Source: Terriglobia bacterium (GTDB lineage Bacteria; Acidobacteriota; Terriglobia; Terriglobales; Acidobacteriaceae). From it: a stretch of DNA of 64,000 bases. Both the position numbers and the translations under genes were made by a program. Of this stretch, positions 28,259-44,158 are shown piece by piece (the first letter of the stretch is position 1; every line of letters starts with the position of its first letter). The stretch is taken from positions 1-64,000 of the forward strand of contig JAIQEU010000027.1 of NCBI GenBank assembly GCA_020073665.1, written 5' to 3'. A model generated the notes under the pieces. The model worked only from the letters and a program-made list of their open reading frames with translations. It made no database searches and was not told the DNA's origin.

Positions 28259-28490
28259 CTGGCGGGTTTAAGGTTGGCAGCGTCGACGGCTGAAAGGATC
28301 GGTCCAAGTAATGTTGACCAGTCCGAAGTAGGCTGGGTGATCCACTTGGCGAGGCAACTCGTCGAGCCACCAAACCCGAAAAAACCAACTGCCCTGCGAG
28401 GAGCAGCTGGGGTTTGGAACCGCAAAAGCGGTGATCGCATCAGAGGGCTGCGACGGTACACGCATCCACGCTGTGGGCTCCCTCGCAAGA
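28259..28490 (-). repeat. 230-bp inverted repeat, left copy
   Basis: The minus strand of this region aligns along its whole length with the plus strand of 29938-30170. Shared blocks include GCGAGGGAG, GATGCGATCAC, GTTCCAAACCCC, CCTCGCAG, TTTTTCGGGT and CAGCCTACTTCGGACTGG. The short frames in both copies are related only because the DNA is. Confidence 0.8.
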
Positions 28491-28683
28491 GCTTGCAGCT
28501 AGAGCGTAACCAATGCCGCAGCCCTTTTCTTTTGCCTGCCACGTAAAAGCGCCCCAGAGCAATTTTGGTCAGCCACACCCAGGTCCTCATTATTCATTAG
28601 TAATAGGCGGCCGCCAAAAGGCAGGTGAGTGTTCGTCAACCAGAGACGAGCGACGCCAAAAGACAGGCCACGCGGACTTCATT

Positions 28684-29187
28684 CTATGCAGCCCCGTAAC
28701 CGAACAGTTTCTTGCATTCCTGTCGGAGAAAACCGCCTGTGACCGGGATGCGGTGATTGCCCTTCTCGAAGACGAGCCGACAGGGGATGAGGCAAGCTCG
28801 CCACTTGTAGTCTTCCGTACCGCGCTTGCGGCCATACGCGGCAATGTCCTCTTGGGAGACGCCGTAGACGACCGCGCCAATCCTGGACCACACGCAGGCG
28901 CCGGCGCACATCGCGCAGGGCTCGTGCGTGGAGTAGAGCACGAAGTCGGGCAGATACCGGCCATAGCCGCTTGATACGTATTTGAGCGTTTCCAACTCTA
29001 CGTGCTTGATGCTTGACCCCGAAGTTTTTACTCGGTTACCGGCGCTGGCAATGACCACTTCGCGCTTGCCCGTGAGGCGGGTGATGACCGCACCGATGGG
29101 ATAGTCGCCTCGGTCACGGGCGCGCTTGGCCTCCGCGATGGCCAGCTGCATGAACCTCTTTTTCGGTTTGTAGGAGGCAGGGATCAT
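28684..29187 (-). CDS. Cytidine/guanine/adenosine-type nucleoside deaminase family protein
   Basis: This 167-residue zinc-dependent deaminase of the CMP/dCMP superfamily has the zinc and catalytic motif HVELETL (H-x-E) and PCAMCAGACVWSRI (PCxxC). QLAIAEAKRARDRGDYPIGAVI is the usual N-terminal helix and strand. The order resembles guanine deaminase or TadA-like enzymes rather than free cytidine deaminases. The substrate cannot be decided by eye. It is first in a three-gene minus-strand cluster with an Mth938-like and an FmdB-like gene (transcription order FmdB, Mth938, deaminase), between inverted repeats. Confidence 0.88.
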   Translation of the reverse strand: MIPASYKPKKRFMQLAIAEAKRARDRGDYPIGAVITRLTGKREVVIASAGNRVKTSGSSIKHVELETLKYVSSGYGRYLPDFVLYSTHEPCAMCAGACVWSRIGAVVYGVSQEDIAAYGRKRGTEDYKWRACLIPCRLVFEKGNHRIPVTGGFLRQECKKLFGYGAA

Positions 29188-29739: not shown

Positions 29740-29937
29740 ATTGCCTCCAGGTGAAGAGTGGATAACAAAATTGTAGACCCCAACAGCGTCTGATTCAAAC
29801 CGAAGGCAACCGATGCCTTGCGGACGATCCACAACCTTGAGCAGCGTCCAAGGTTAGGCGGGTTCGCGAAGGAATGGATTTGAGGAAGGGGTAGAAATTA
29901 AGAAGGCCGTGACATTGGTTATGCTCTAGCCGCCGAC

Positions 29938-30170
29938 TCCTGCGAGGGAGTCAACAGCGTGGAAGCATGCACCGTCACAGCCCCCTGATGCGATCACTGC
30001 TTTCGCAGTTCCAAACCCCAACGGCCCCTCGCAGAGCGGTCGGATTTTTCGGGTCTGGTTGCCCAACAGGTTGCCCTGCCAAGCCGGATCACTCAGCCTA
30101 CTTCGGACTGGCTAAGTTTTATTTCAGCCAACCCTTTCGGCCGTCGACGGGGCCAACCTTAGTCCCCCGT
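29938..30170 (+). repeat. 230-bp inverted repeat, right copy
   Basis: Counterpart of 28259-28490 in opposite orientation, with the same ordered blocks and visible but moderate divergence. The pair encloses the FmdB/Mth938/deaminase cluster. The rest of the gap 29740-30515 has no recognised gene. Confidence 0.8.
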
Positions 30171-31199: not shown

Positions 31200-31898
31200 A
31201 TGAGGTACAAAGCAGTATCCGCCATGCTGTTTTCGCTAGCGGCTTTTGGATTTGTTACTCATTTTGCATCCGCCAGTACGACCGGCATTCTCGTACCGAC
31301 GTACGAAGGCTATTACAAAGAGTGGAAACCGAGCACGGGATCCACGCACTACACGTTGGTCGATGAGACGCCCTGCAACAGCACCGATTACAACGCGACG
31401 ACCACCATCGCCAAGCGCGACTCCTACGGCATCAGCCTTTCCACCGTGGGCAACGGCGCCTACATTTCCCAGATCGACATCCAGCCCTGCGCCTCGCGCC
31501 AGACGACCGGCACCGGCACGGCGACCTCGAACGTCTTCTATCGGTATAACGGAGTAGATAGCAGCGATGCTGGGAACTACGCTCTTTCCGGTACTACGCC
31601 GGTGCAGCTTGCTACCACTACATTCTCCAGTCTTAACCTTTTCAAAACCGCAACAAGCACACTTGAGACGGGCATGATCTATTCGGCGGGCGACAAAGGA
31701 GCGCGCCTCTCCCGCATTGCCACCAAGGTGACATATACGCTCTCCGCACCCTCGGCGCCATCGAATCTCACCGCTTCGAGCGTTGGCTCCACCCAAATGA
31801 ATCTTGGCTGGACGGACAATTCGACGAACGAAACGGAATTCCAAATCTATCGGGCGCTGAACGATGGTGCGTACTCGAAGATCGCTACTACCACCTAG
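31200..31898 (+). CDS. N-terminal part of an amber-interrupted secreted FN3/beta-helix/metalloprotease
   Basis: This 232-residue fragment has a signal peptide (MRYKAVSAMLFSLAAFGFVT to about ASAS). A domain of about 150 residues of unknown type follows, then the first half of a fibronectin type III domain (APSNLTASSVGSTQMNLGW, NETEFQIYRALNDGAYSK). It stops at TAG 31896-31898 in mid-domain. The same frame continues without any other interruption to 35114, and the residues after the TAG complete the FN3 fold (DTVTYNNTGLTADQTYSYEV). This is one gene with a nonsense codon, a readthrough case, or a sequencing error. Confidence 0.75.
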   Translation: MRYKAVSAMLFSLAAFGFVTHFASASTTGILVPTYEGYYKEWKPSTGSTHYTLVDETPCNSTDYNATTTIAKRDSYGISLSTVGNGAYISQIDIQPCASRQTTGTGTATSNVFYRYNGVDSSDAGNYALSGTTPVQLATTTFSSLNLFKTATSTLETGMIYSAGDKGARLSRIATKVTYTLSAPSAPSNLTASSVGSTQMNLGWTDNSTNETEFQIYRALNDGAYSKIATTT

Positions 31899-31958
31899 GA
31901 TACCGTCACATACAACAACACAGGGCTGACCGCCGACCAGACCTATTCCTACGAAGTT

Positions 31959-34900
31959 GTGGCGTACAATTCCGCCGGCACAGCAACATCAAATGCCGTG
32001 ACTGCCATTACGTATAGCTCCGTCCCGCCCGATCCGTCAAACCTGACCGCGGTCACGTCGTCCAACGATGTCATATTGACCGTGGCTGACAATTCGAACA
32101 ACGAGGACGGCTTTTGGATCGAGCGCGGAACCAACATGGGCAATCTCGCGTTCCTGGCGACCACCACCCGGAACCTGACGGCCTCCATGACCTACACCGA
32201 TGTCGGCGCGGGCACCAGCATCTACTATTATCGCGTGCGGGCATACAACGTCCTTGGCGATTCCGGATACTCCAATCCCGCTACCGACGCAGACGTTATC
32301 ACTGTCTCAGGCGCCATCTCTGCCGATACGACGTGGGACTCGAGCCATATCTACAAAGTGACCAATGCCACTATTAGCTCGGATGTCACCCTTACCATCA
32401 ATGCCGGCACCGTCGTGAAATTCACTTCTAACTCCTCGGGCATCACCGTCCAGGGAACATTAAGCGCACAGGGAAGCGCGGGCAGCCTGATCTATTTCAC
32501 CTCGCTCAAGGATGATTCCGTGGGCGGCAACACCGACGGTGTCTCGGACACGCCCGCCCAGAAAGACTGGAACACTATAGACATCGAGTCCAACGGCACG
32601 GCCAATATCACGAACGCGGTCGTCCGCTACGGCGGGGACAACAACAGTGGGCACTATGGGGCGGAGTTCTACGTGAACGGCGGCAGCCTGACGATGGCGA
32701 GTTCCACGGTGGCCACCAGCACCTACGGCATCTACAGCGCGACCGGCACTACCTCCATCGCGACATCCGACATCTCTTCAAACACGACGAACGGCAAAGG
32801 AATCTGGATCGACGGTGGCACGGTCAGCGTCACCTCCTCGAATATCCATGATAATAAATACGGCGTATACAATCTCGAAGACTACGGCATGGGCGGACCG
32901 CACATCACCATCTCGGGCAGCCATATCTATAACAACGGCTTTTACGGCGTGGCTGTCTCGGGCGCGGGCTCCCTCGACCTTACCGGCAACACCTTTACGG
33001 ATAACGCCACAATGGCCGTTAAAGTCGATCTATCCATAGGGCTTACCTTCACCCATTCAGGGAACACCGCCTCGGGAAGCGGATTTGGCGGATTCGGCAT
33101 TTCTGGAATCATGATCAACAACCAAACCTGGACCGGGGGCGATCTGCCATATATCCCATCGGGTTTCACGGTGTCATCGGTGGCCACGCTGACCATCGAT
33201 TCCGGCACGGTGGTGAAGTTCAAGGCCCAGAATGCCTCTTCGTATATCTACGTCTCCGGAACCTTGAACGCCCAGGGAACTGCCGAAAGCCCGATCTATT
33301 TCACTTCGATAAACGACGATGACGCGGATGGCCTGGACACCAACGGCAGCAGCACCTCCCCTGTAGCGGGGGACTGGGATACGATCGAAGTCGATTCCGG
33401 CGGCACGGCCAACCTTGCGCACACCGTCGTCCGCTACGGCGGGTACACTGGCGGGGGAGGGACGGGAGCAGAGCTTTACAACTACGGCGGCACGCTCGAT
33501 CTCTCCGATTCCGAAGTAGCGACGAGCAAGACGTACGGTATTTATCAGCAATCCGGTGCGAGCACGATCACGTCCTCCAATATTCATGACGTGACGGGTG
33601 CCTCGACCTACGGCATCTACGCCGCCGACGGTAGCTTGGACTTGGAGGATAGCACGTTCTCCAATAACACCACCGACATCCATACGGAACCAGGGGTTAC
33701 CTACACCCATGACGGCAACACCTTTTCTAATGGGTGTCCGGAAGCGGGCATCTGCAAGGGTGGGACGATCTCGAGCGATACGACGTGGGTAGCGAGCAGC
33801 ACGCCCTACGTGGTCACCTCGACGCTCACCGTTGCGGGGGGCGCGACGCTCACCATTAATGCGGGAGCGATCGTGAAATTCAGCACGACCACGTCGAACA
33901 TTGTCGTAGAAGGAGCGCTAAACGCGGCAGGTTCCGCAACAGGAACTATCTACTTCACGTCACTCAAGGATGACACAGTGGGAGGGGACACCAACGGGGA
34001 CAACGGCGCGACATCGGCAACCTCGGGCGATTGGGACGGCATTGTCATCCACACCGGCACGAGTTCCATTGCGTACGCCACTCTACGCTACGGCGGTCAC
34101 AGTTCCGGCGCAGTCTACAATTACGACGGCAGCCTCACAATCGCCAGCTCTACCATAGCCACGAGCACGAACTATGGTATTGCCCAGGCGGGGACTAATG
34201 CTGTCAGCACCGTCATCGCATCTGAAATCCACCACATAAAGTCAGGCTACGGATATGGTGTGTATGTCTACGATGGCACGATGGATATTCATGCGAGTGC
34301 GATTCATGATAATGCGTATGGGGTAGTTGACAACTCTGGCACTTTGACTATCTATGGCTCAGACATTCATGATAATGGTTATGGAGTATATATCGCAGCC
34401 GGCACAGCATCAGTTACCGACAATGCATTCTCCTTTAATACCAGCTATGGATTGTATACGGAGGTAGCCGGGATCGACGCAACTTACAATTTCTGGAATC
34501 ATTATAATGGTCCATCACCGGAAGGTGATGGTGACTCAGTTGGCGGTTCGATTACCCATAATGACTATTATCCGTGGCATGCCGTGAATAATGTTCTCGT
34601 CAACTCATCAGTCCACGACGGGATGATACGCTGGGCTGGCTCAACCCCTTCATACGAAGATGAGTGGAGCTATGCGACATCCGTTTGGGCTATGGAAAAT
34701 GATGGCAACGAAGTAAGGATTCTATCGGCGACAACAAGCCCAGCCGATGTCACGCTGCAGGAATGGAATCACGACGACGGGGAACGTCTTGGTTATTACA
34801 GTCAATACAAGCCGAAATCTGTGCCGCCGACGACAGATACAGACATGATTTACATTAATTCGTATGCTATTGATGTGTATCCTGGGCAATCGGCAACTGG

Positions 34901-35114
34901 GGTGGAGGCTGATTGCTTGCATGAACTCGGGCACGCGCTTGGGCTTGGTCACAGCCATGATGGAAATGTTATGGTCAGCAATGCTGCGGGAGGTCCCCCA
35001 TCAGAAAGAGGGGAGCCGGTTCTTAATGCCAATGGCGATCCTATTCTTGGCGACCAGGACAAAAGCGACTATCATTGGTGGTGGACAATATTCAGATGGG
35101 TTCTCTCATTCTAA
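31959..35114 (+). CDS. Continuation: FN3, right-handed beta-helix repeats and C-terminal metzincin protease
   Basis: This is the larger part of the interrupted gene; the GTG at 31959 is internal to an FN3 domain and unlikely to be a real start. After a second FN3 domain come three long modules. Each starts with a (T)TW...TLTINAG..VKF strand set and continues with IYFTS, GDWD.I and RYGG (beginning near 32320, 33120 and 33770), with many short Asn/Gly/Ser strands typical of a beta-helix. The C-terminus has HELGHALGLGH (about residue 988), the metzincin HExxHxxGxxH zinc site, with NVMV as Met-turn. It is probably a surface or secreted protein. Style and composition resemble candidate-phyla-radiation proteins, suggesting transfer. 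Confidence 0.8.
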   Translation: MAYNSAGTATSNAVTAITYSSVPPDPSNLTAVTSSNDVILTVADNSNNEDGFWIERGTNMGNLAFLATTTRNLTASMTYTDVGAGTSIYYYRVRAYNVLGDSGYSNPATDADVITVSGAISADTTWDSSHIYKVTNATISSDVTLTINAGTVVKFTSNSSGITVQGTLSAQGSAGSLIYFTSLKDDSVGGNTDGVSDTPAQKDWNTIDIESNGTANITNAVVRYGGDNNSGHYGAEFYVNGGSLTMASSTVATSTYGIYSATGTTSIATSDISSNTTNGKGIWIDGGTVSVTSSNIHDNKYGVYNLEDYGMGGPHITISGSHIYNNGFYGVAVSGAGSLDLTGNTFTDNATMAVKVDLSIGLTFTHSGNTASGSGFGGFGISGIMINNQTWTGGDLPYIPSGFTVSSVATLTIDSGTVVKFKAQNASSYIYVSGTLNAQGTAESPIYFTSINDDDADGLDTNGSSTSPVAGDWDTIEVDSGGTANLAHTVVRYGGYTGGGGTGAELYNYGGTLDLSDSEVATSKTYGIYQQSGASTITSSNIHDVTGASTYGIYAADGSLDLEDSTFSNNTTDIHTEPGVTYTHDGNTFSNGCPEAGICKGGTISSDTTWVASSTPYVVTSTLTVAGGATLTINAGAIVKFSTTTSNIVVEGALNAAGSATGTIYFTSLKDDTVGGDTNGDNGATSATSGDWDGIVIHTGTSSIAYATLRYGGHSSGAVYNYDGSLTIASSTIATSTNYGIAQAGTNAVSTVIASEIHHIKSGYGYGVYVYDGTMDIHASAIHDNAYGVVDNSGTLTIYGSDIHDNGYGVYIAAGTASVTDNAFSFNTSYGLYTEVAGIDATYNFWNHYNGPSPEGDGDSVGGSITHNDYYPWHAVNNVLVNSSVHDGMIRWAGSTPSYEDEWSYATSVWAMENDGNEVRILSATTSPADVTLQEWNHDDGERLGYYSQYKPKSVPPTTDTDMIYINSYAIDVYPGQSATGVEADCLHELGHALGLGHSHDGNVMVSNAAGGPPSERGEPVLNANGDPILGDQDKSDYHWWWTIFRWVLSF

Positions 35115-35138: not shown

Positions 35139-36083
35139 ATGCGAAGTTTTAACAAGATATTCATAACTATCACTGGTCTTGCCCTGTTCTTATCGGTGGG
35201 TCTAACCCTAGGTCTTCAGAATCGGGCGACCAAGTCGCAACCCGTGCCGACCGAGGGGGCATTCTCGCAAGCAAGCGGAATAGGTGCCTGGACTGATGAT
35301 CGGGCCTTGGTCGGGAGGTCACATTACATATTCGTGGCACAAGTGAAGAGTGATGACGGTCCGCTGACGGTGACCGCCGGAATTATCGTTAATCTCTATT
35401 CGGTTCGTGTTCTGGACAACATTAAAGGGGAACTGCAGGGGACGGTCAAGCTTGAGCAAAGTCGATATGCCAACGGCGACAGCTCTAAACCGGATGATCC
35501 GCTTCATGTTGGAGCAACCTACGTATTTGCGACGCTATTCAGTGTGCCGCAGACATCGTACATTCTCTCTGCTCCCCCATATGACCGGAAGCTCATCACT
35601 GATGATGCCAGCCTTTCCGATGAGCGCCTGAAGGGACTTGCCTCGCAAGATCCACGGGTTCTTGCGTTGCGGGCTGCATACCCGAATGAAATCATTTCGC
35701 CGGTAGCACATGAGTTCGGCCTGGATTGGAATAATTATGAATCCGTAAAGTTGGGGCATCCATTGCTGCCGGATACAATAGAGGGTTATCAAAAAAAACT
35801 TAGCGACATGGATACTGCTTTAGCAGAAAGACGCCGAAGCGCGAAGCCATCTACATCTACTACTGCAGCCGACCTCCAACCGAGCGCTCCCGCCTCCGAA
35901 CCTGCGACTTCCGTTTCGCCTTCCGCCTCGCCCGAATTGACCGCTACTCCTGAGCCGACGATTGAAGCGACCGCAACCCCCGAGCCTTCGCCAACTCCTT
36001 CCGAGACGCCGACTCCGACTCCAACTCCCGTGCCGTCAGCCACGCCCGTTCCATCCGATCTTGCTCCCACGCCATCAATCTAG
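35139..36083 (+). CDS. Secreted protein with Ser/Thr/Pro-rich tail
   Basis: This 314-residue protein has an N-terminal hydrophobic signal or anchor (FITITGLALFLSVGLTLGL). Residues about 45-220 form a globular domain (GRSHYIFVAQVKSDDGPLTV, VLDNIKGELQGTVKLEQSRY, YVFATLFSVP) that I cannot name. The tail from about residue 235 is built of A/S/T/P/E with PTPTPTP runs, like a cell-wall-spanning linker. It starts 24 bases after the metzincin gene and probably shares its transcript. Two terminators follow. Confidence 0.75.
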   Translation: MRSFNKIFITITGLALFLSVGLTLGLQNRATKSQPVPTEGAFSQASGIGAWTDDRALVGRSHYIFVAQVKSDDGPLTVTAGIIVNLYSVRVLDNIKGELQGTVKLEQSRYANGDSSKPDDPLHVGATYVFATLFSVPQTSYILSAPPYDRKLITDDASLSDERLKGLASQDPRVLALRAAYPNEIISPVAHEFGLDWNNYESVKLGHPLLPDTIEGYQKKLSDMDTALAERRRSAKPSTSTTAADLQPSAPASEPATSVSPSASPELTATPEPTIEATATPEPSPTPSETPTPTPTPVPSATPVPSDLAPTPSI

Positions 36084-36320: not shown

Positions 36321-36695
36321 ATGCTCGTGGCAGACGTGCCGAACCAACTTCCAAACTACCTTCGCGCATATCGCAAAAGATGCGGCTTTTCTCAGGAGGA
36401 ACTTGCCTATTTGGTGAAATTGAATGGCAAGTCGGCCTGGTCCAATCTGGAACGATTCCGTCGCCAGCCGTCGTTACGCACGGCTCTTGCCTGTGAAGAG
36501 GTTTTCGGCATTCCTGCGTCTCGGCTGTTTGCCGGGATCAGGATGTCGGCGGGGAGAGAAACTACGCGACGCATGCGCGCGTTGAGACACCAGCTCGCAG
36601 CTGAGAGGAACACAGGGAGTTGCCTCCGCCGCGCCATGCAAAAGCTCCAGTGGCTTAGCCAGCGATTGGGAAGGTTCATCCCTTCCCCCTCATGA
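36321..36695 (+). CDS. XRE-family helix-turn-helix regulator
   Basis: This 124-residue protein has an N-terminal Cro/CI-type HTH (about 8-70: LPNYLRAYRKRCGFSQEELA, SAWSNLERFRRQPSLRTALA, CEEVFGIPASRLF). The basic C-terminal part (about 75-124) is extra. Its TGA overlaps the ATG of the next gene (ATGA), so the two are cotranslated and probably functionally linked. Confidence 0.88.
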   Translation: MLVADVPNQLPNYLRAYRKRCGFSQEELAYLVKLNGKSAWSNLERFRRQPSLRTALACEEVFGIPASRLFAGIRMSAGRETTRRMRALRHQLAAERNTGSCLRRAMQKLQWLSQRLGRFIPSPS

Positions 36696-37210
36696 CGAGA
36701 GCGGCGCGCCCTGGTACAAGAATTCTTGCCCTTGATCTGCACCCGCAACGGTACGGTTATGCGGTATTGGAGACGCCCACAGAATTGCTGGATTGGGGTG
36801 TGAAGAGACGATATCGCAAGGGACAGCCGCGAGCAGAGTCACCGCTCTGTAGACGTTTGCAGTCACTGCTGGATCTTTGGCAGCCGTCCTTCGTGGTCGT
36901 CACGGAACCGTCGAAGTCTACGCCGGCTCGGATGCGAAAACTTCTCACTGAAGCTATCGAAAAACTGGGCCATCGCCGCATCTCGATGCGTTGCCTTTCC
37001 CGGCGAGGAATACGAAAGGCGTTCAGTAATGAGGGGCGCATAACGAAGTATGCGATAGCCTCGATGCTGATCGAACATTTTCCGTTTCTCGCCTCCCGGC
37101 TGCCCCGCAAGCGGAGAATCTGGGAGAGCGAAGACTACCGGATGAGCATGTTTGCTGCGGTGGCACTGGTGCTCGCCGCAAGCGGTCGGCGGCCTACTGC
37201 GAGCCACTAG
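36692..37210 (+). CDS. RuvC/RNase H-fold protein coupled to the XRE regulator
   Basis: This 172-residue protein has an RNase H-like layout. Strand 1 carries an acidic residue (ILALDLHPQRYGYAVLE), a later strand carries Glu (FVVVTEPSKS), and the C-terminal helix carries acidic residues (WESEDYRMSMFAAVALVLAA). This matches the D-E-D pattern of RuvC-like resolvases and nucleases. It is too divergent to name, but is consistent with a Holliday-junction or transposon-type nuclease. The start overlaps the stop of the XRE gene. Confidence 0.65.
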   Translation: MTRAARPGTRILALDLHPQRYGYAVLETPTELLDWGVKRRYRKGQPRAESPLCRRLQSLLDLWQPSFVVVTEPSKSTPARMRKLLTEAIEKLGHRRISMRCLSRRGIRKAFSNEGRITKYAIASMLIEHFPFLASRLPRKRRIWESEDYRMSMFAAVALVLAASGRRPTASH

Positions 37211-37268
37211 GCGTCCTACGTCAAGCATAGGGGTCCAAAAGGCCCACATTTTGGCCGTTATTCAGGGA

Positions 37269-37292
37269 AAAGTTGTTGTCGACGACAACTTT
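37269..37292. promoter_or_regulatory. Near-perfect 24-bp palindrome
   Basis: AAAGTTGT...TCGA...ACAACTTT is symmetrical except for one base pair. It lies 64 bases before the next gene and may be an operator, perhaps for the XRE regulator. Confidence 0.45.
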
Positions 37293-37355
37293 GCACGTCT
37301 AGGAACGACCAGCGTTTGGATGCTAGCGTACGGATGTCATCAGTAATTCGCCCGT

Positions 37356-37619
37356 ATGCCTCACGACGATCCCAAAGAATACAACCTCTCGGTCCGCACC
37401 AATGATGTGCACGCCGCGATCGCGCAAACGGCCGGCGCCCTCTACGAGCTGATGGAGGAAGCCCTGCAAACCCACGAGGACCATGAGGCGGAGGAATGTG
37501 AGTTTGAGCTCTTCGCGCGGGACATCCTCGCGGTTTTGTCGCGCCACGCCGACCAAATGGCCGAGGGCGAAAGCTCGTGGACTGATGACCTCGAAGCGGC
37601 CGCAGATGAACTCGCCTAG
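37356..37619 (+). CDS. Small acidic hypothetical protein
   Basis: This 87-residue, strongly acidic helical protein (ALYELMEEALQTHEDHEAEE, DDLEAAADELA) is unrecognised. The composition resembles small DNA-mimic or antitoxin-like proteins of mobile elements, but nothing specific supports that. Confidence 0.5.
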   Translation: MPHDDPKEYNLSVRTNDVHAAIAQTAGALYELMEEALQTHEDHEAEECEFELFARDILAVLSRHADQMAEGESSWTDDLEAAADELA

Positions 37620-37886
37620 GACTAGCACGGCAATTCGTTCTTTCGCTCCTTGAACGATCTCTCCCCAATAGGCAAGTAGTAACACGTGCACTGAACGGAA
37701 ATGCGCTATCACCAGAGGATTTCCACGCACATTTGTTTCGAACTGCCGATGAAGGTTGGGGAGAGATAGTTTAGTGAACGATCCAACCTCGCACCTTTCC
37801 AAATTCAACGGGGTAAGACCGCTGGCCGTCTAGCCCCGCTCCACTCTCCGTAGTTTTCCAAACCCCATTCGCAAAGGAGAAGATTG

Positions 37887-38642
37887 ATGGTTAACGGACA
37901 ACTCTTGTCCCATGTGGACACCGATCTCGTCACTCGCGACCAACTTGCCGTGATTCCCACGCCCGAACCGACCCGAACTTGGAGACCAATCCCGCATATC
38001 GAGCTTATTGAGACGCTCCAACAGGCCCTGTGGGAGAGCCGCATTGGCATACACGAAGAGAAATTCGCCCTTCGCCATGACGGTTCGACGCTCTTTGGCG
38101 TCTTGCAATTGGCATATAAGGACACGCCCGACGGACAGGCGGCGTTAGGCATCCGCACGTCGAACGACAAATCGATGTCGATACAGATCTGCGCCGGCCT
38201 ATCGGTATTCGTGTGCGACAACCTTGTCTTCCGCGGTGACCTCATCGCGTTGAATCGGAAGCACACCTCCGGCCTTGACCTTCAGACGGATCTCAAGGCT
38301 GCGGTGCGTCGCTTTCAAGAGCACTTCGGGTGCTTGGCTGACGAAATCGATCAGTTAAAGGCGCGGTACCTCACGGACGGCGAAGCCAAGGTGCTGATCC
38401 ACGATGTGTTCGTGAAGGGTATTTTCCCGCTGCGATTCCTGCCCCAAATCTCGGGCACGTACTTCCAACCGCCGGTTCAAGACTGGGAAGAACGCACGTC
38501 CTGGTCACTCCACAACGCGTTCACCCTGGTTGCGAAACAAATGCCGATCAGCACCAGACTTCCCGCGATCCAGGAGCTTGGCCGGATCTTCGGCATGTCG
38601 AGCCAGCCCCCGGAAGGAAAACTGATCGAGGCGGTCGCATGA
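37887..38642 (+). CDS. DUF932-family protein (plasmid/phage-associated)
   Basis: This protein of about 251 residues starts at ATG 37887 behind AAAGGAG. PHIELIETLQQAL, ALRHDGSTLFGVLQL, GIRTSNDKSMSIQICAG and VFVCDNLVFRGD are the core blocks of the DUF932 family found on plasmids and phages. The molecular function is unknown. Its TGA overlaps the ATG of the next gene. Confidence 0.82.
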   Translation: MVNGQLLSHVDTDLVTRDQLAVIPTPEPTRTWRPIPHIELIETLQQALWESRIGIHEEKFALRHDGSTLFGVLQLAYKDTPDGQAALGIRTSNDKSMSIQICAGLSVFVCDNLVFRGDLIALNRKHTSGLDLQTDLKAAVRRFQEHFGCLADEIDQLKARYLTDGEAKVLIHDVFVKGIFPLRFLPQISGTYFQPPVQDWEERTSWSLHNAFTLVAKQMPISTRLPAIQELGRIFGMSSQPPEGKLIEAVA

Positions 38643-39178
38643 GCACCCGAGCCTGTATTGCTCGAAAAACCGGACCGACAACTTTCCAAGGCGTCTACCA
38701 CCACTGGGACGGCTATCCCACGGCGCTGGGCGCAACGCTCTGGTCTCTCTACCACGGCCATTTCAAGCGCGATCTCGAGAAGATGCTTTCGCTTCTGATC
38801 GACGAGCACCCCGCAGGCTGGAGCACCATCAACAATGCCGATTTCAAACTTCCTGCCGCGTATCAAGAGGCGAAATACCGGAAGAAGCGTAACGGCGACA
38901 ACGACTATTCCAAGCCGATTCCGCACGGGCCCATCTGCTACTGCCATGGCGGGCGTCATGAAGAAAAGAAACTCATGCATGTACTCGAGCGCGTCTATAC
39001 CGACAATGCGGTCTCGACTGGCGGCGCCAACCTCGGCGGCAAACACATGGTCGGAATGTTTGGCTGCGGCGCACCTGGACACCAGCGCTGGCAGGACCTA
39101 GCCGCAGTTGCGCTCGACGGACCGGAGCCGGATTGGGAATCTCTTCGGAGCGTCCAAGCTGCAACGAATCTCAAATGA
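38639..39178 (+). CDS. Hypothetical protein coupled to the DUF932 gene
   Basis: This 179-residue protein has the N-terminal motif TRACIARKTGPTTFQGVYHH followed by WDGYP, which recurs in phage- and plasmid-encoded proteins of unknown function. A Cys/His cluster (PICYCHGGRHEE) follows. The start overlaps the DUF932 stop by ATGA, indicating cotranslation. Confidence 0.72.
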   Translation: MSTRACIARKTGPTTFQGVYHHWDGYPTALGATLWSLYHGHFKRDLEKMLSLLIDEHPAGWSTINNADFKLPAAYQEAKYRKKRNGDNDYSKPIPHGPICYCHGGRHEEKKLMHVLERVYTDNAVSTGGANLGGKHMVGMFGCGAPGHQRWQDLAAVALDGPEPDWESLRSVQAATNLK

Positions 39179-39263
39179 CCTTTGAAACCCCCGCCTTTCA
39201 TCTAGAACTCTCAGCGAAGGCGAGCTCGACCTGAATCTTTTCCCTCGTTTGGAGACGGAACGA

Positions 39264-39968
39264 ATGAAGAACGTATGGAGACCTACGCTCACGACGAAAG
39301 AGGCTTTGGCTGTCTGTGGTTCTCTCAGCAACCCGAGCAAGATGCCTGGCCATGGATATGCGCTACCGGCGCAACGGTGCCGGCTGGGCAGCCTTCTCGA
39401 GCTCATCCCGAAAACCGTTTGTCACTACTGTTATGCCCTGCGCGGCCGGTACCTGTTTCCGGCAGTTAAGGCGGCGATGGAGAAACGGTTCTCCAGCCTA
39501 TCCGACCCGCGCTGGGTCGAAGCCGTAAGCACGCTCATTTATCGCTCGGGAGATCGACACTTCCGGTGGCATGATTCCGGCGATATCCAAAGCCTCGAGC
39601 ATCTCCGTAAGATCATTGCAGTGTCTTGGAAGCTGCCGCGGGTGAAGTTCTGGTTGCCTACCAGGGAATACCAGACCATCGAGGCGTACCGGAGAATGTG
39701 CGGGATCATTCCCCCGAATCTCTGCGTCCGGTATTCCGCTCACGTCATAGATGCTCCGCCACCGCTCCAGTATGGGTTGCCCGTGAGCACTGTCTCCTCC
39801 TACCCGGAAAAGGCCCCGGCCGGTACACATCGTTGTCGCGCGGCGAAACACGGAAATGTCTGCGGCCGGTGCCGAGCGTGCTGGGATCGGCAGGTCAAGA
39901 TCATCAATTTTCCGTTGAAATGGCCATCGTCCACTTTCCGAATCACGGGGCGCGAAGTGGGCAAATAG
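39264..39968 (+). CDS. Phage Gp88-like protein
   Basis: This 234-residue protein is read from ATG 39264 (GGAG at 39251-39254). Diagnostic segments are NPSKMPGHGYALPAQRC, the Cys motif KTVCHYCYALRGRY, WVEAVSTLIY, FRWHDSGDIQSLEHL and VKFWLPTREYQT. A C-terminal Cys-rich zinc-like patch (CGRCRACWDRQVK) follows. These match the mycobacteriophage Gp88-like family carried by many mobile elements; the biochemical role is not established. A terminator follows. Confidence 0.85.
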   Translation: MKNVWRPTLTTKEALAVCGSLSNPSKMPGHGYALPAQRCRLGSLLELIPKTVCHYCYALRGRYLFPAVKAAMEKRFSSLSDPRWVEAVSTLIYRSGDRHFRWHDSGDIQSLEHLRKIIAVSWKLPRVKFWLPTREYQTIEAYRRMCGIIPPNLCVRYSAHVIDAPPPLQYGLPVSTVSSYPEKAPAGTHRCRAAKHGNVCGRCRACWDRQVKIINFPLKWPSSTFRITGREVGK

Positions 39969-39997
39969 TTCTTTGAAGAATGTAAAAGAAAGCACAA

Positions 39998-40021
39998 GAG
40001 CCAGCAAAGCTGGCTCCTTTT
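39998..40021 (+). terminator. Terminator after the Gp88-like gene
   Basis: GAGCCAGC, loop AAA, GCTGGCTC, then CTTTT: a perfect 8-bp stem 30 bases after the stop. Confidence 0.85.
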
Positions 40022-40191
40022 CAAACACTGGCCCGGGGTCCAGGCCCGGGTCATATGATGGCGGCAAACGTGGCTTAACCACGCGACCCGAATCCGTTCC
40101 AACCGGTGTTTTGTCGCCGCTTTTCTGGCCTGGGTTGAGAGAACGTTCCTCTTAAAACCGTGCATAACGCGGCCGGTGAATACCCCATATA

Positions 40192-40941
40192 ATGCGACAT
40201 CTGCAAACAGGACATCTTCTGCTTTTTCGTATCCTTCGAGACGAGTGTCTCTTCTTAAACAGTCGCCAGATCCAGCGTATTTTGACCCGAGCCAAACGTG
40301 CCGCAAACAAGGAACTCGCTTGGCTGGTTTCGGCGGGATACCTGCAACGCCGCTACCGGCTGGAGACGGTGTCGCATTTCCAGGTGCCGCTCTACTATTT
40401 GGGCAAATTGGGCTGGGAGATGGTCGGAAACGCGGCGGAGGGGTACCGAGCGTACCAGAAGGAGATCGCACAGCGGTCGGAACGGCAGACAGATCATCTG
40501 CTGGCAGTCTATGACGTATTCCTCAAGTTCATCTTGGAATCGGAAGTGAAGCAGATCATCGGCGGTGAAGACAGGTTGTGGCAGGAATCGCTCGGCTTCG
40601 GAAACCTACCCGATGGGTGGATCCAGTCTAACGGCGGCGAGGTGTTCATCGAAGTTGATCTGGGTACCGAGCGTCCAGGAGTTGTGGCCAAAAAGTTTGC
40701 AAACTACATCAAGTTCAAAGAATCGGGAAACTACGGACTGATGTTTCCCGGGTGCGGGTTCAAGGTGCTCTTCATCACGACAACCGAGGTGCGGATTGAA
40801 TCGCTGGAGCGGCTGGCGATGACGGATGACATTTGGTTCGCGACGATGGACGAGTTCGTGAGGGAGAGATTGGATCATCAGCACTGGTTCGCGGTTAACG
40901 GATTTTATGCTCTACCTGTTGCTGCAAAAAAAGAAGTGTAA
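40192..40941 (+). CDS. Replication-relaxation-like protein
   Basis: This 249-residue protein has an N-terminal winged-helix part (QIQRILTRAKRAANKELAWL, VSAGYLQRRYRLE, PLYYLGKLGWEMV). The C-terminal part is nuclease-fold-like (WIQSNGGEVFIEVDLGTERP, KFANYIKFKESG, VLFITTTEVRIESLERL). This layout is typical of replication-relaxation family proteins from plasmids and integrative elements, thought to assist replication or mobilisation. It overlaps the next gene by 35 bases. Confidence 0.8.
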   Translation: MRHLQTGHLLLFRILRDECLFLNSRQIQRILTRAKRAANKELAWLVSAGYLQRRYRLETVSHFQVPLYYLGKLGWEMVGNAAEGYRAYQKEIAQRSERQTDHLLAVYDVFLKFILESEVKQIIGGEDRLWQESLGFGNLPDGWIQSNGGEVFIEVDLGTERPGVVAKKFANYIKFKESGNYGLMFPGCGFKVLFITTTEVRIESLERLAMTDDIWFATMDEFVRERLDHQHWFAVNGFYALPVAAKKEV

Positions 40942-41254
40942 GAACTGCGGCAAGCTCAACCACAGGGATGTGCTGTTCTGTTGGTTGTGCGGATCCTCTT
41001 TTAACTTACGTATCTGCGCCTCCGGCCACAAAAATCCAGCCTGGGTGCATCATTGCCTTACCTGCGGCAAGGATCGAACCTTGATGTCTCGCCCCCACTT
41101 CTCCAAGGAAATGTCGTTCGTAAAACATCCCACCAAACCGTCCACCTACATTCCCGGACGGCGGAAGATCGACCATGTCCTTCCGTGGTTCGCCGTGTGT
41201 TTGGGAGCCGCAATTCTTGGATACATGGCTTTCCTGATTGCGCGAAGTCTGTAG
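40907..41254 (+). CDS. Double zinc-ribbon protein with C-terminal membrane helix
   Basis: This 115-residue protein carries four CxxC-type knuckles (CKNCGK, CWLCGS, CASGH, CLTCGK), giving two zinc ribbons in the first 60 residues. The C-terminal transmembrane helix (FAVCLGAAILGYMAFLIARS) would leave the ribbons on the cytoplasmic face or fold them at the membrane. It overlaps the replication-relaxation gene and is probably coexpressed. The function is unknown. Confidence 0.72.
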   Translation: MLYLLLQKKKCKNCGKLNHRDVLFCWLCGSSFNLRICASGHKNPAWVHHCLTCGKDRTLMSRPHFSKEMSFVKHPTKPSTYIPGRRKIDHVLPWFAVCLGAAILGYMAFLIARSL

Positions 41255-41276
41255 CCGGATCTCTAATTTGACCCGC

Positions 41277-41732
41277 ATGGACAACAAACCTCAAGCGACA
41301 ATCTCACAGATTCTGCCCGGCTTTGTCGAGTACATGTGGGCGGAGAAGCGTTTCGCGGCCGCTACGGTTAGCAAGTATAAGGAAAACATCCTCTCGTTCA
41401 TGCGAGAGGTGGGGGATCTGCCGGTTACTGAACTGGGATTGGTGCACATCGTAACCTTGAAAAGCCGGATGGCTGCGCGAGGCGCTCAAGAAGCCCGGAT
41501 GGCAAGCATGATCTTTGCGATTAAGAGCCTGCTGGTCTATGCGCGCGATGTGCTGCTTATCCGAGTGATGGAGCTGTCTGCGATCAGGGCGCCGAAGCCG
41601 TTGCGTCGGCAGGTAGTGTACTTATCGTCCGACGAGCTCCAAACATCAGCTCGCAGAAAACATCAAGAAAGCCGGCCGAGACTTGAAAGAAAGTGTATGG
41701 AGGACATACAAGAACATCGTTTTGCTCGGTAA
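41277..41732 (+). pseudogene. Truncated tyrosine recombinase (N-terminal SAM-like domain only)
   Basis: Residues 1-120 read as the N-terminal core-binding domain of a XerC/D-type recombinase (PGFVEYMWAEKRFAAATVSK, MREVGDLPVTEL, KSLLVYARDVLLI), reaching VVYLSSDEL just before the catalytic domain. From about 41636 the sequence belongs to another gene in a different frame. The last 30 residues are therefore frameshifted DUF499-like codons, and the catalytic domain is missing. Confidence 0.8.
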
Positions 41733-42486
41733 GGACAACCAGCTCCGCGTGACGGATATGGGTTTGATCCACTCGAGCGCGGCGGACACCATGGTTACAC
41801 TCGTTCTGAATCGGTTGCGCCAAGATGGCGACGTGGAAAAGGACGTCAGTCCCAACTTCCTCGTTCGAAATTGGCCGGGAATGAAAGAATGGAGCACCAA
41901 ATCCGTGCGGGACGCATTCTTTGCGTCGCCGAAATTCCCGAGGCTTCTTAACCCGGAAGGTGTAAGAGAGACCATTGCGCGTGGAGTGGAAAGCAGTATT
42001 TTCGCGTATGTGGGGAAGACCGGTTCTGGAACGTACGAGCCATTCTTTTATGGTGGTGGGATTCTCGCTGGAGGTGTGGAACTTTCCGACGACGTATACA
42101 TCATTCCCAGGGAAACTGCTGAGCAGTACAAGAAGGCAAAAGACGCTGCCGTCTCTGGCCAGGCGGGTGGTCAGGGTACCTTTGAGTTGACTCCGCCTAC
42201 AGGCAGCAAGACTCCGGAGAAGCCTGAGGAAGAAAAAGGTGGTCAGCCAAAGTCCGCTGTCGCGGGTGCAGCAAGAAAGATAACCTGGGCAGGAGAGATT
42301 CCGCCTCAGAAGTGGATGAATTTTTACACGAAAGTTCTGTCCAGGTTCGTGGGATCGAAAGGATTGAAGTTGACGCTCAATGTCGAAGTGGCGCCCCAGG
42401 AGGGTGTTTCGTCACGAAAAATAGAAGAGACAAAAGTTGCCCTCAGCGAACTAGGGTTGGATTCCGATATAAAAACGACGGAATAG
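41635..42486 (+). pseudogene. C-terminal remnant of a DUF499-like ATPase
   Basis: The frame opens at the recombinase junction and reads AENIKKAGRDLKESVWRTYK, then NIVLLGKDNQLRVTDMGLIH, LNRLRQDGDVEKDVSPNFLV, STKSVRDAFFASPKFPRLLN and YEPFFYGGG. This matches the C-terminal part of large DUF499-family ATPases as I know them, which often accompany DUF1156-type methyltransferases in defence-like clusters. The ATPase domain is absent. A Pro/Gly/Glu linker and a small C-terminal domain complete it. A shorter protein could start at TTG 41683, but it is best seen as a relic. Confidence 0.75.
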
Positions 42487-42505
42487 ACGACGCTAAGGCT
42501 CGGTT

Positions 42506-44158
42506 ATGAAGCTGATCTCAGAAGTCACCATCAAAAGCTTTCGGTCGATTAGCGATGCCCGATTGAGGGATTTGGGCAATTTTACCGCGATCGCCGGATT
42601 AAACAATTCGGGCAAATCGAACCTCCTCAGGGCTCTCAACGCATTCTTTTCGGGTTACACGGAACCCCTTGTGCCGCTGTCCGTCGATGACGACTACTTC
42701 AGACCGCACCTGCGAAAAAAGAAAGCAAAAAAGATAAGCATCGGCGTCAAGTTTTCTCTGCCCACCTCGTTCAGATTTAGAAAAGGTATTGAAGGAGTTA
42801 AGAAGCTGCTCGGCGGCAACGAGTTCGAGATTCTAAAGCAGTGGGATCGGTCTCGAGCAACTCCTCGTTACTTTCTTAACGGTAAGGAAGTCAGCCTTGA
42901 GGACAGGCAAAAGATTGAGCAGTTTCTGAGCCTCGTGTCGTTCCGATATATTCCCAATCGAGTCCTCCCATTGGAGGTCGTCCGAAAAGAACATCAATCT
43001 CTCCGGGACGTACTGGTGAGGCGACTGGCCCGGCGTGGCAAGAGCGACGAAGCGCTGTTTAACACGCTACAAACGAAGTCGGCAGAACTCATCCACAGTC
43101 TTTCGAAGCGGGTCAATGCGGCTTGTCCAGATGTTGCGGATGTTCGACTGGCTACGCCAGCTTCCTGGCGCGAAATGATTTTCGCATTTGGCTATAAATT
43201 ACACAGTGGCAATGAGGAGATGGACGACACTGCCCAAGGTTCGGGAATACAAAGTTACCTGATGCTCGAGACCCTCTCTTTGATTGACCGCGATTACTTC
43301 AAGCAATTCGGATGGAAACAAGCCGCGATATGGGCAGTTGAGGAGCCGGAATCGTCACTGCATAGCTCACTGGAAGCGAGAGTGGCAGATTTTCTAGCGG
43401 GCATATCGACAGACTCATCAAGTAGATTGCAGGTGATCGCGACAACGCATTCTGATTTGATGCTGCAGTATGCTGACGAAGCGGTGTTTGCCGAGAAACA
43501 GGACGGAGCGACGTCTTTTGTTGGCCAGAAAGACAAGCGGACCGTCTTGGAACGGGCAGCACAGGCCGGGATCTCGCGATGGATACACCCAATACTGGCG
43601 AGTCCACTAGACCCAGTGGTCCTTGTTGAGGGGAAATCTGACTCGATGTTCCTGCAACAAGCGGTTCGAATCATTCGGCCTGCGGCCCGGATCAATATCT
43701 GCTGCCTCGAGGAATTAGAAGGCGGAAAGACGACAGGCGGAGTAGACAGGATGGTTCAATACGTAAAGGCAAATGTCGCCGCTCTCAGAGCGAGAGTGCT
43801 CACGGCTCCTGTCATTGTCGTTCTGGATTGGGACTCGGCCTCTAAGAAAGTCGAATTCGAGAAATATCTGAAGGAATGCAAGGCGTGTGAAGTATTGACG
43901 TGGCCGGACACGACGTTCAATCCTCGGCTTGACGAGACCTTCCATGGGATAGAGCGTCACATGTCGGATAGAATTATCGATGCTGCGGGCAACGGCTTTA
44001 TTGCCACAAGAGCTGACGGCACTAAGGTCATTGCAAAGAAGGATATCGATCGGTTTAAGAAGGCAGTTATGAAGGGCTTTGAGCAGGGGATTACCGAGAC
44101 CGACATTCAGCATGCGAAACCTTTTGTAGAGGAAATACTTAAGGCCGCCAAGATCTAG
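42506..44158 (+). CDS. OLD-family ATP-dependent nuclease
   Basis: This 550-residue protein has an N-terminal ABC-type ATPase: FRSISDA, Walker A GLNNSGKSNLL, the signature-like QGSGIQSYLML, Walker B WAVEEPESSLH and the switch ATTHSDLML. A C-terminal TOPRIM-like nuclease follows (VVLVEGKSDSMFL with Glu, VIVVLDWDSASKK with acidic residues). This is the OLD overcoming-lysogenization-defect architecture, shared by phage-defence nucleases such as GajA. No UvrD-like GajB partner is adjacent, so it may act alone. It lies next to the integrase, a common place for defence cargo; the genes converge with 3' ends overlapping by 4 bases. Confidence 0.88.
   Translation: MKLISEVTIKSFRSISDARLRDLGNFTAIAGLNNSGKSNLLRALNAFFSGYTEPLVPLSVDDDYFRPHLRKKKAKKISIGVKFSLPTSFRFRKGIEGVKKLLGGNEFEILKQWDRSRATPRYFLNGKEVSLEDRQKIEQFLSLVSFRYIPNRVLPLEVVRKEHQSLRDVLVRRLARRGKSDEALFNTLQTKSAELIHSLSKRVNAACPDVADVRLATPASWREMIFAFGYKLHSGNEEMDDTAQGSGIQSYLMLETLSLIDRDYFKQFGWKQAAIWAVEEPESSLHSSLEARVADFLAGISTDSSSRLQVIATTHSDLMLQYADEAVFAEKQDGATSFVGQKDKRTVLERAAQAGISRWIHPILASPLDPVVLVEGKSDSMFLQQAVRIIRPAARINICCLEELEGGKTTGGVDRMVQYVKANVAALRARVLTAPVIVVLDWDSASKKVEFEKYLKECKACEVLTWPDTTFNPRLDETFHGIERHMSDRIIDAAGNGFIATRADGTKVIAKKDIDRFKKAVMKGFEQGITETDIQHAKPFVEEILKAAKI

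What the first reader, a model, noticed from the sequence alone, without database searches (positions are those of the whole stretch)
31200..35114. A 1304-codon FN3/beta-helix/metzincin gene with a single in-frame amber codon
TAG at 31896 lies in the middle of an FN3 domain, but the same frame continues for 1050 codons with intact domains and an intact HELGHALGLGH protease site. A recent nonsense mutation, programmed readthrough or suppressor use, or an assembly error are all possible. The lack of any other damage argues the change is very recent or tolerated.
Basis: seen in the sequence. Interest (0 to 1): 0.58.

Follow-up and report, generated by a model that had tools for sequence, protein, structure and literature searches.

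The report
Surface protease gene cut by amber
A large secreted-protease gene, probably acquired from another kind of bacterium, is interrupted by a single stop codon; the evidence points to an ordinary recent loss-of-function change, or a sequence error that cannot be checked here, rather than to a special decoding trick.

Summary
Frame 31200-35114 is open for 1304 codons except one TAG at 31896-31898. The TAG lies inside a single FN3 domain (31746-32012), so both halves were once one gene. The metzincin site (34920-34952) is intact.

Suppression or recoding is disfavoured. TAG is the commonest stop in a 464-kb sample of this genome (132 of 298 crude gene calls). RF1 is intact, no CTA-anticodon tRNA was found among 76 Rfam tRNAs, and PylS is absent. 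Open coding sequence follows TAG (13 of 131 calls) about as often as TAA (6 of 76) or TGA (9 of 89). In-frame stops in FN3 domains of the class are sporadic: 3 of 150 listed rows, this one included. Best reading: recent nonsense mutation. A consensus error cannot be excluded without reads.

The gene looks imported. One Ca. Lloydbacteria contig carries the helix-metzincin protein followed by a relative of this window's next gene (35139-36083). That second protein is predicted, at modest confidence, to have a netrin/TIMP-like OB fold, but it has no cysteine, so the TIMP mechanism is not met. The pair rests on two cases. It interests me more than the amber codon.

The parts
31200..31745 (+). Signal-peptide-like start and N-terminal domain (182 codons)
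   Evidence: 52% identical over the alignment to a stand-alone 186-aa protein of Ca. Harrisonbacteria (L157). No Pfam or NCBIfam family. The signal peptide is my reading of the sequence; no predictor was run.
31746..32012 (+). FN3 domain 1, cut by the amber codon
   Evidence: FN3 profile match E 3.9e-26 with 1 TAG inside
31896..31898 (+). In-frame TAG, codon 233
32022..32318 (+). FN3 domain 2 (approximate limits)
   Evidence: matches of residues 2-135 of the 31959 ORF to FN3 proteins of related genomes
32319..34502 (+). Three repeated beta-helix modules
   Evidence: PF13229, three stretches; the modules are 51-53% identical to the first
34503..35114 (+). Metzincin-like protease domain with HELGHALGLGH at 34920-34952 and a Met-turn-like Met at 34971-34973
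   Evidence: PF00413 20.6 bits, below the cut-off; aligned with the L107 protease domain; motif read; 'Met-turn' is recalled knowledge
35139..36083 (+). Second gene of the pair: one N-terminal hydrophobic helix, netrin/TIMP-like OB domain (residues about 49-185), Pro/Thr-rich tail
   Evidence: 31% identical over 162 residues to the gene after the L107 protease gene; model and fold match

Best explanation
A nonsense change has recently interrupted a horizontally acquired gene for a secreted FN3/beta-helix/metzincin surface protein. Translation stops at codon 233 (RF1 reads the TAG), giving a secreted 232-aa stub that ends in half an FN3 domain. The rest of the frame has no signal peptide and no obvious ribosome-binding site, so the protease is not exported or is not made. 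Shown: one TAG inside one FN3 domain, standard use of TAG in this genome, intact RF1, no suppressor found, a distant homologue and an adjacent-gene homologue in a candidate-phylum bacterium. Inferred: that the change is real rather than an error, that it is recent, and that the product is lost.
For: Single lesion in 1304 codons. Domain straddles the stop. TAG is the commonest stop, 132 of 298 gene calls in 464 kb. prfA 535.9 bits, over cut-off, no stops. No CTA anticodon in the ARAGORN calls on loci covering the 76 Rfam tRNA places. No PylS. The gene offers 181 one-substitution routes to TAG, 140 to TAA, 73 to TGA, so amber is the likeliest first nonsense lesion. The first ATG in frame after the stop is 79 codons on, with no Shine-Dalgarno-like word before it. 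Sporadic stops in FN3 domains elsewhere in the class: 2 more among the 150 listed rows, TAG in G232 and TGA in G268.
Against: No reads and no genome of the same genus to compare (G000 is alone in its genus), so neither reality nor age was tested. One lesion is also what a tolerated or read-through stop would show. The frame after the stop has no second lesion. The mean coding score in the 50 codons after a TAG (-0.104) is slightly higher than after TGA (-0.170) or TAA (-0.156), and 34 of 131 TAG frames stay open for 60 codons or more against 21 of 89 and 14 of 76; I take this as adjacent genes, not readthrough, but did not prove it. A second metzincin-FN3 gene in the class (G232) also has a TAG in its FN3.
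Confidence: 0.7

Rival explanations
1. The TAG is a sequencing or assembly consensus error and the gene is whole.
For: The genome is a 62-contig draft with 1.87% estimated contamination; one isolated base difference is the usual form of such an error.
Against: The locus lies mid-contig (31-35 kb of a 64,993-base contig) and no other lesion was seen in the frame.
Confidence: 0.16
2. Low-level basal readthrough (near-cognate tRNA) makes a little full-length surface protease, so the stop acts as a dimmer rather than a knock-out.
For: The downstream frame is intact. In-frame stops under purifying selection have been reported across bacteria (PMC7918605; abstract and passages seen). A second Terriglobia-type metzincin-FN3 gene has a TAG in FN3.
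Against: TAG is the commonest terminator sampled; no RNA structure in the 122 bases after the TAG (z 0.56); FN3 stops in the class are rare and of mixed type.
Confidence: 0.1
3. Two separate proteins: a 232-aa secreted protein and a re-initiated downstream protein.
For: The N-terminal domain exists alone as a 186-aa protein in L157, and L107 has the helix-metzincin part without FN3 or N domain.
Against: The stop cuts one FN3 domain in half; the downstream frame starts inside that domain with no signal peptide and no Shine-Dalgarno-like word before its first ATG.
Confidence: 0.02
4. Amber suppressor tRNA, pyrrolysine or codon reassignment decodes the TAG.
For: None found. Eighteen of 168 tRNA candidates were not scored, and the genome is a draft.
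Against: No CTA tRNA; RF1 intact; no PylS; TAG commonest stop.
Confidence: 0.02

Closest known systems
In-frame stop codons in bacterial genes (Belinky et al. 2021, PMC7918605; abstract and passages seen)
   Same: One stop in an otherwise intact, recognisable frame; their worked example is also TAG.
   Different: Theirs are conserved between species and tested by dN/dS; here only one genome has the gene, so conservation could not be tested.
Ca. Lloydbacteria 936-aa beta-helix/metzincin gene plus next gene (MHLM01000012.1, L107)
   Same: Beta-helix modules, HELGHALGLWH protease end, and a homologous next gene.
   Different: No FN3 domains and no N domain; uninterrupted; 34% identity.
Matrixin/M10 metzincins; bacterial members such as karilysin (recalled; paper listing seen)
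   Same: HExxHxxGxxH site followed closely by Met.
   Different: Pfam score below cut-off; attached to a beta-helix; fold not predicted.
NTR/TIMP-fold domains (agrin NtA, PCOLCE NTR, complement C3/C5 C-terminal domain, N-TIMP)
   Same: Predicted OB-fold core of the second protein: agrin NtA Z 10.0, rmsd 3.1, 111 residues; N-TIMP-3 Z 8.1, rmsd 3.7, 115 residues.
   Different: No cysteine at all, N-terminal membrane-type helix, 8-16% identity in the listed rows; PriB and SSB OB folds score close behind (Z 7.4-7.8).

Membership tests
Pseudogene by nonsense mutation | In-frame stop inside a conserved domain | tested here: met
   FN3 domain 31746-32012 read through 1 TAG
Pseudogene by nonsense mutation | Loss of product | not testable with these tools
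   needs expression data
Pseudogene by nonsense mutation | Stop confirmed by reads | not testable with these tools
   no reads held
Programmed stop-codon readthrough | Stop conserved between orthologues with coding constraint downstream | not tested
   no orthologue with the N domain, FN3 and helix together was found
Programmed stop-codon readthrough | Stimulatory RNA structure after the stop | tested here: not met
   122 bases, z 0.56; 136 of 200 shuffles fold as well
Amber suppression, reassignment or pyrrolysine | tRNA with CTA anticodon | tested here: not met
   none in ARAGORN calls on loci covering 76 Rfam tRNAs; pattern search 15 hits against 41 in its reversed control, none called as a CTA tRNA. 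18 of 168 candidates were unscored.
Amber suppression, reassignment or pyrrolysine | PylS | tested here: not met
   no match at E 0.001
Amber suppression, reassignment or pyrrolysine | TAG rare or absent as terminator | tested here: not met
   132 of 298 calls end in TAG
Matrixin/M10 metzincin | HExxHxxGxxH zinc site with nearby Met | tested here: met
   34920-34952 and 34971
Matrixin/M10 metzincin | Pfam PF00413 at its cut-off | tested here: not met
   20.6 bits against 24; L107 20.0 bits
TIMP/NTR (second gene) | NTR-type OB fold | tested here: inconclusive
   model mean pLDDT 55.4; best Z 10.0, other OB folds at 7.4-7.8
TIMP/NTR (second gene) | N-terminal Cys-X-Cys that binds the catalytic zinc (mechanism recalled; Cys1-X-Cys3 disulfides in a passage of PMC9409782) | tested here: not met
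   no cysteine in either protein

The most novel reading that the evidence does not exclude
Bacteria carry a mobile two-gene unit in which a secreted beta-helix metzincin is encoded next to a membrane-anchored protein of netrin/TIMP-like fold that controls it: a cysteine-free prokaryotic counterpart of the MMP-TIMP pairing. In this genome the protease has been silenced or dimmed by an amber codon while the partner gene stays open.
Probability: 0.12. Interest if true: 0.65.

Novelty: new member of a known kind. Interest (0 to 1): 0.3.

Why it matters
As an amber-interrupted gene it is ordinary: in-frame stops in bacterial genes are known (PMC7918605). It is a useful negative case, because a long intact frame after a stop codon is shown here to be compatible with a genome that uses TAG as its main terminator. 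The larger interest is the gene pair: if the second protein binds the protease, it would suggest a bacterial parallel of metalloproteinase-inhibitor pairing that can be tested with two recombinant proteins.

Tried and rejected
Suppressor tRNA, pyrrolysine and code change: rejected. Readthrough-stimulating RNA structure: none seen in 122 bases. Relatives in viral contigs: none by full query or by the second gene. Phage DNA and plasmid DNA: no match. Plasmid protein search: 3 weak partial hits covering 14-17% of the query. Known structures by sequence for the second protein: 0. N domain model: mean pLDDT 42, unusable, not searched.

A recent recombination junction inside the gene: third-position GC falls from 0.73 to 0.49 at 34173 (log-likelihood gain 44.0; 200 permutations at most 6.6; nine other window genes at most 9.2). 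I rejected 'recent junction' because L107 shows the same kind of fall (0.60 to 0.37, gain 31.3).

A mobile unit shared with G014: only the deaminase gene (92.8% of bases over 511 and 500 bases, in two places) and the DUF498 gene (75.7% over 552) match, not the pair. Searches in print. None of the titles and abstracts listed described this pair; one search listed no paper. That is a limited search, not proof of absence.

Full report
Observation. The frame 31200-35114 is open for 1304 codons apart from one TAG at 31896-31898. The TAG lies inside a single FN3 domain: a profile of eight FN3 domains matches 31746-32012 over its whole length with the TAG read through, E 3.9e-26. Because one domain straddles the stop, the two parts were once a single gene. 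The aligned column holds small residues in most of 58 relatives' stretches, Ala in 38.

The gene. Residues 1-182 are a signal-like start and a domain with no Pfam or NCBIfam family. This domain is found alone, as a 186-aa protein 52% identical in alignment, in a Ca. Harrisonbacteria genome. Two FN3 domains, three beta-helix modules and a metzincin-like end follow. The Pfam matrixin score is below cut-off, so I call it metzincin-like on its motif and on its alignment with L107.

Origin. I think it is an Acidobacteriota (Terriglobia) genome from gene content, such as the OMP_b-brl_4 protein; that is inference. In 61 relatives the 1051-aa part matched 7 genomes, own included, and the other six matched only in the FN3 region, residues 2-135. 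In 399 genomes of the class the 232-aa part matched 50, own included. The other rows lie mainly in the FN3 half; one weak row (G079, residues 45-223, E 7.8e-5) reaches into the N domain. The next gene matched only the own genome among 399. One scan of 84,980 species genomes with the helix modules gave 50 loci. Among these and eight later loci, L107 (Ca. Lloydbacteria) alone had the HExxHxxGxxH motif, and alone matched the next gene. L107 has the helix-metzincin protein (34% identity, E 4e-105) and directly after it the relative of 35139-36083 (31% over 162 residues, E 2e-18). The pair is therefore seen in two distant genomes, which suggests transfer; two cases are few. Codon use agrees: the host coding score is 0.193 for the helix part but 0.022 for the protease end and -0.037 for the second gene.

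Is the TAG decoded? In 400 kb of the own genome plus the window I called 298 genes by a crude ORF and codon-score method: 132 end in TAG, 90 in TGA, 76 in TAA. Same-frame coding continuation of 60 codons or more follows TAG in 13 of 131, TAA in 6 of 76 and TGA in 9 of 89, so TAG has no excess. Against this, the mean coding score after TAG is slightly higher than after the other stops. RF1 is intact. Rfam finds 76 tRNAs over its cut-off (18 of 168 candidates unscored). ARAGORN on loci covering those places, and on the pattern hits that lay outside known tRNAs, called no CTA anticodon. PylS has no match. The 122 bases after the TAG fold no better than shuffles. A suppressor, pyrrolysine or a changed code is therefore very unlikely; weak basal readthrough stays possible.

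Is it unusual? In 399 genomes of the class the FN3 profile gave 252 genomes with matches; of the 150 rows listed (hand count; more were not listed) 3 have an in-frame stop: this TAG, a TAG in G232 and a TGA in G268. The G232 case is also a metzincin-FN3 gene: its frame runs on for 141 codons after the TAG. I read these as sporadic interruptions, but the recurrence of TAG in a metzincin-FN3 gene is worth keeping in mind. A separate match in G025 ran over one TAA.

Age. With transitions weighted four to one, 2.4% of substitutions in this gene create a stop, and of the one-step routes 181 lead to TAG, 140 to TAA and 73 to TGA. One lesion corresponds to about 1.0% neutral divergence without indels, or 0.3% with one indel per ten substitutions; upper bounds are 5.0% and 1.3%. 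This assumes neutrality and that the TAG is real.

Mechanism. Most likely RF1 ends translation at codon 233, leaving a secreted stub. The remaining frame begins inside a broken FN3 domain, its first ATG is 79 codons on with no Shine-Dalgarno-like word before it, and it has no signal peptide by eye, so the protease is probably not exported.

The second gene. Its model has mean pLDDT 55.4, with strands of the core at higher confidence. Foldseek's best hits are complement C3 C-terminal domains (E 4.2e-4 and 8.5e-4), followed by OB-fold and NTR proteins, with TIMP-2 at 6.5e-3. VIA-align ranks agrin NtA first (Z 10.0, rmsd 3.1, 111 residues), PCOLCE NTR 8.7 and N-TIMP-3 8.1; PriB scores 7.8. Models without a clear match typically reach 7 to 8, so the margin is modest. 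Neither protein has a cysteine, so the known TIMP inhibition mechanism is not available. I treat protease control by this protein as a hypothesis.

Verdict. Observation confirmed; interpretation partly supported; ordinary nonsense interruption most likely, consensus error second. The imported gene pair is the part that deserves follow-up.

Noticed in passing
window 35139-36083 and L107:8649-9377: Gene following the protease gene in both genomes; predicted netrin/TIMP-like OB fold, no cysteine.
   Followed up: partly
G000:C13:47560-66661 (loci L048, L049): Contig C13 carries 29 ARAGORN tRNA genes in arrays, as on some phages or mobile elements (recalled); none has a CTA anticodon.
   Followed up: partly
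window 28684-29187; G014:C96:4543-5043 and C56:9284-9778: Deaminase gene 92.8% identical in DNA to two copies in a different genus, in unlike surroundings; the match ends near the ORF ends.
   Followed up: partly
window 28345-28533 and 29895-30083: Inverted repeat, 189-nt arms, 80% complementary, around the deaminase, DUF498 and zinc-ribbon genes.
   Followed up: no
window 36321-44158: HTH, GP88-like, replication-relaxation and AAA-family genes in a row, like a mobile or plasmid-derived stretch; the 36692 gene is in 3 of 61 relatives, own included.
   Followed up: partly
L217 / L090 (G232:C25): Another metzincin-FN3 gene with one in-frame TAG inside its FN3 domain, open for 141 codons after it.
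   Followed up: partly
window 34173: Sharp fall in third-position GC inside the gene, 0.73 to 0.49, paralleled in L107.
   Followed up: partly
L107:95-12076: In Ca. Lloydbacteria the pair sits among ribosomal protein genes (my reading of the ORFs; names recalled).
   Followed up: no
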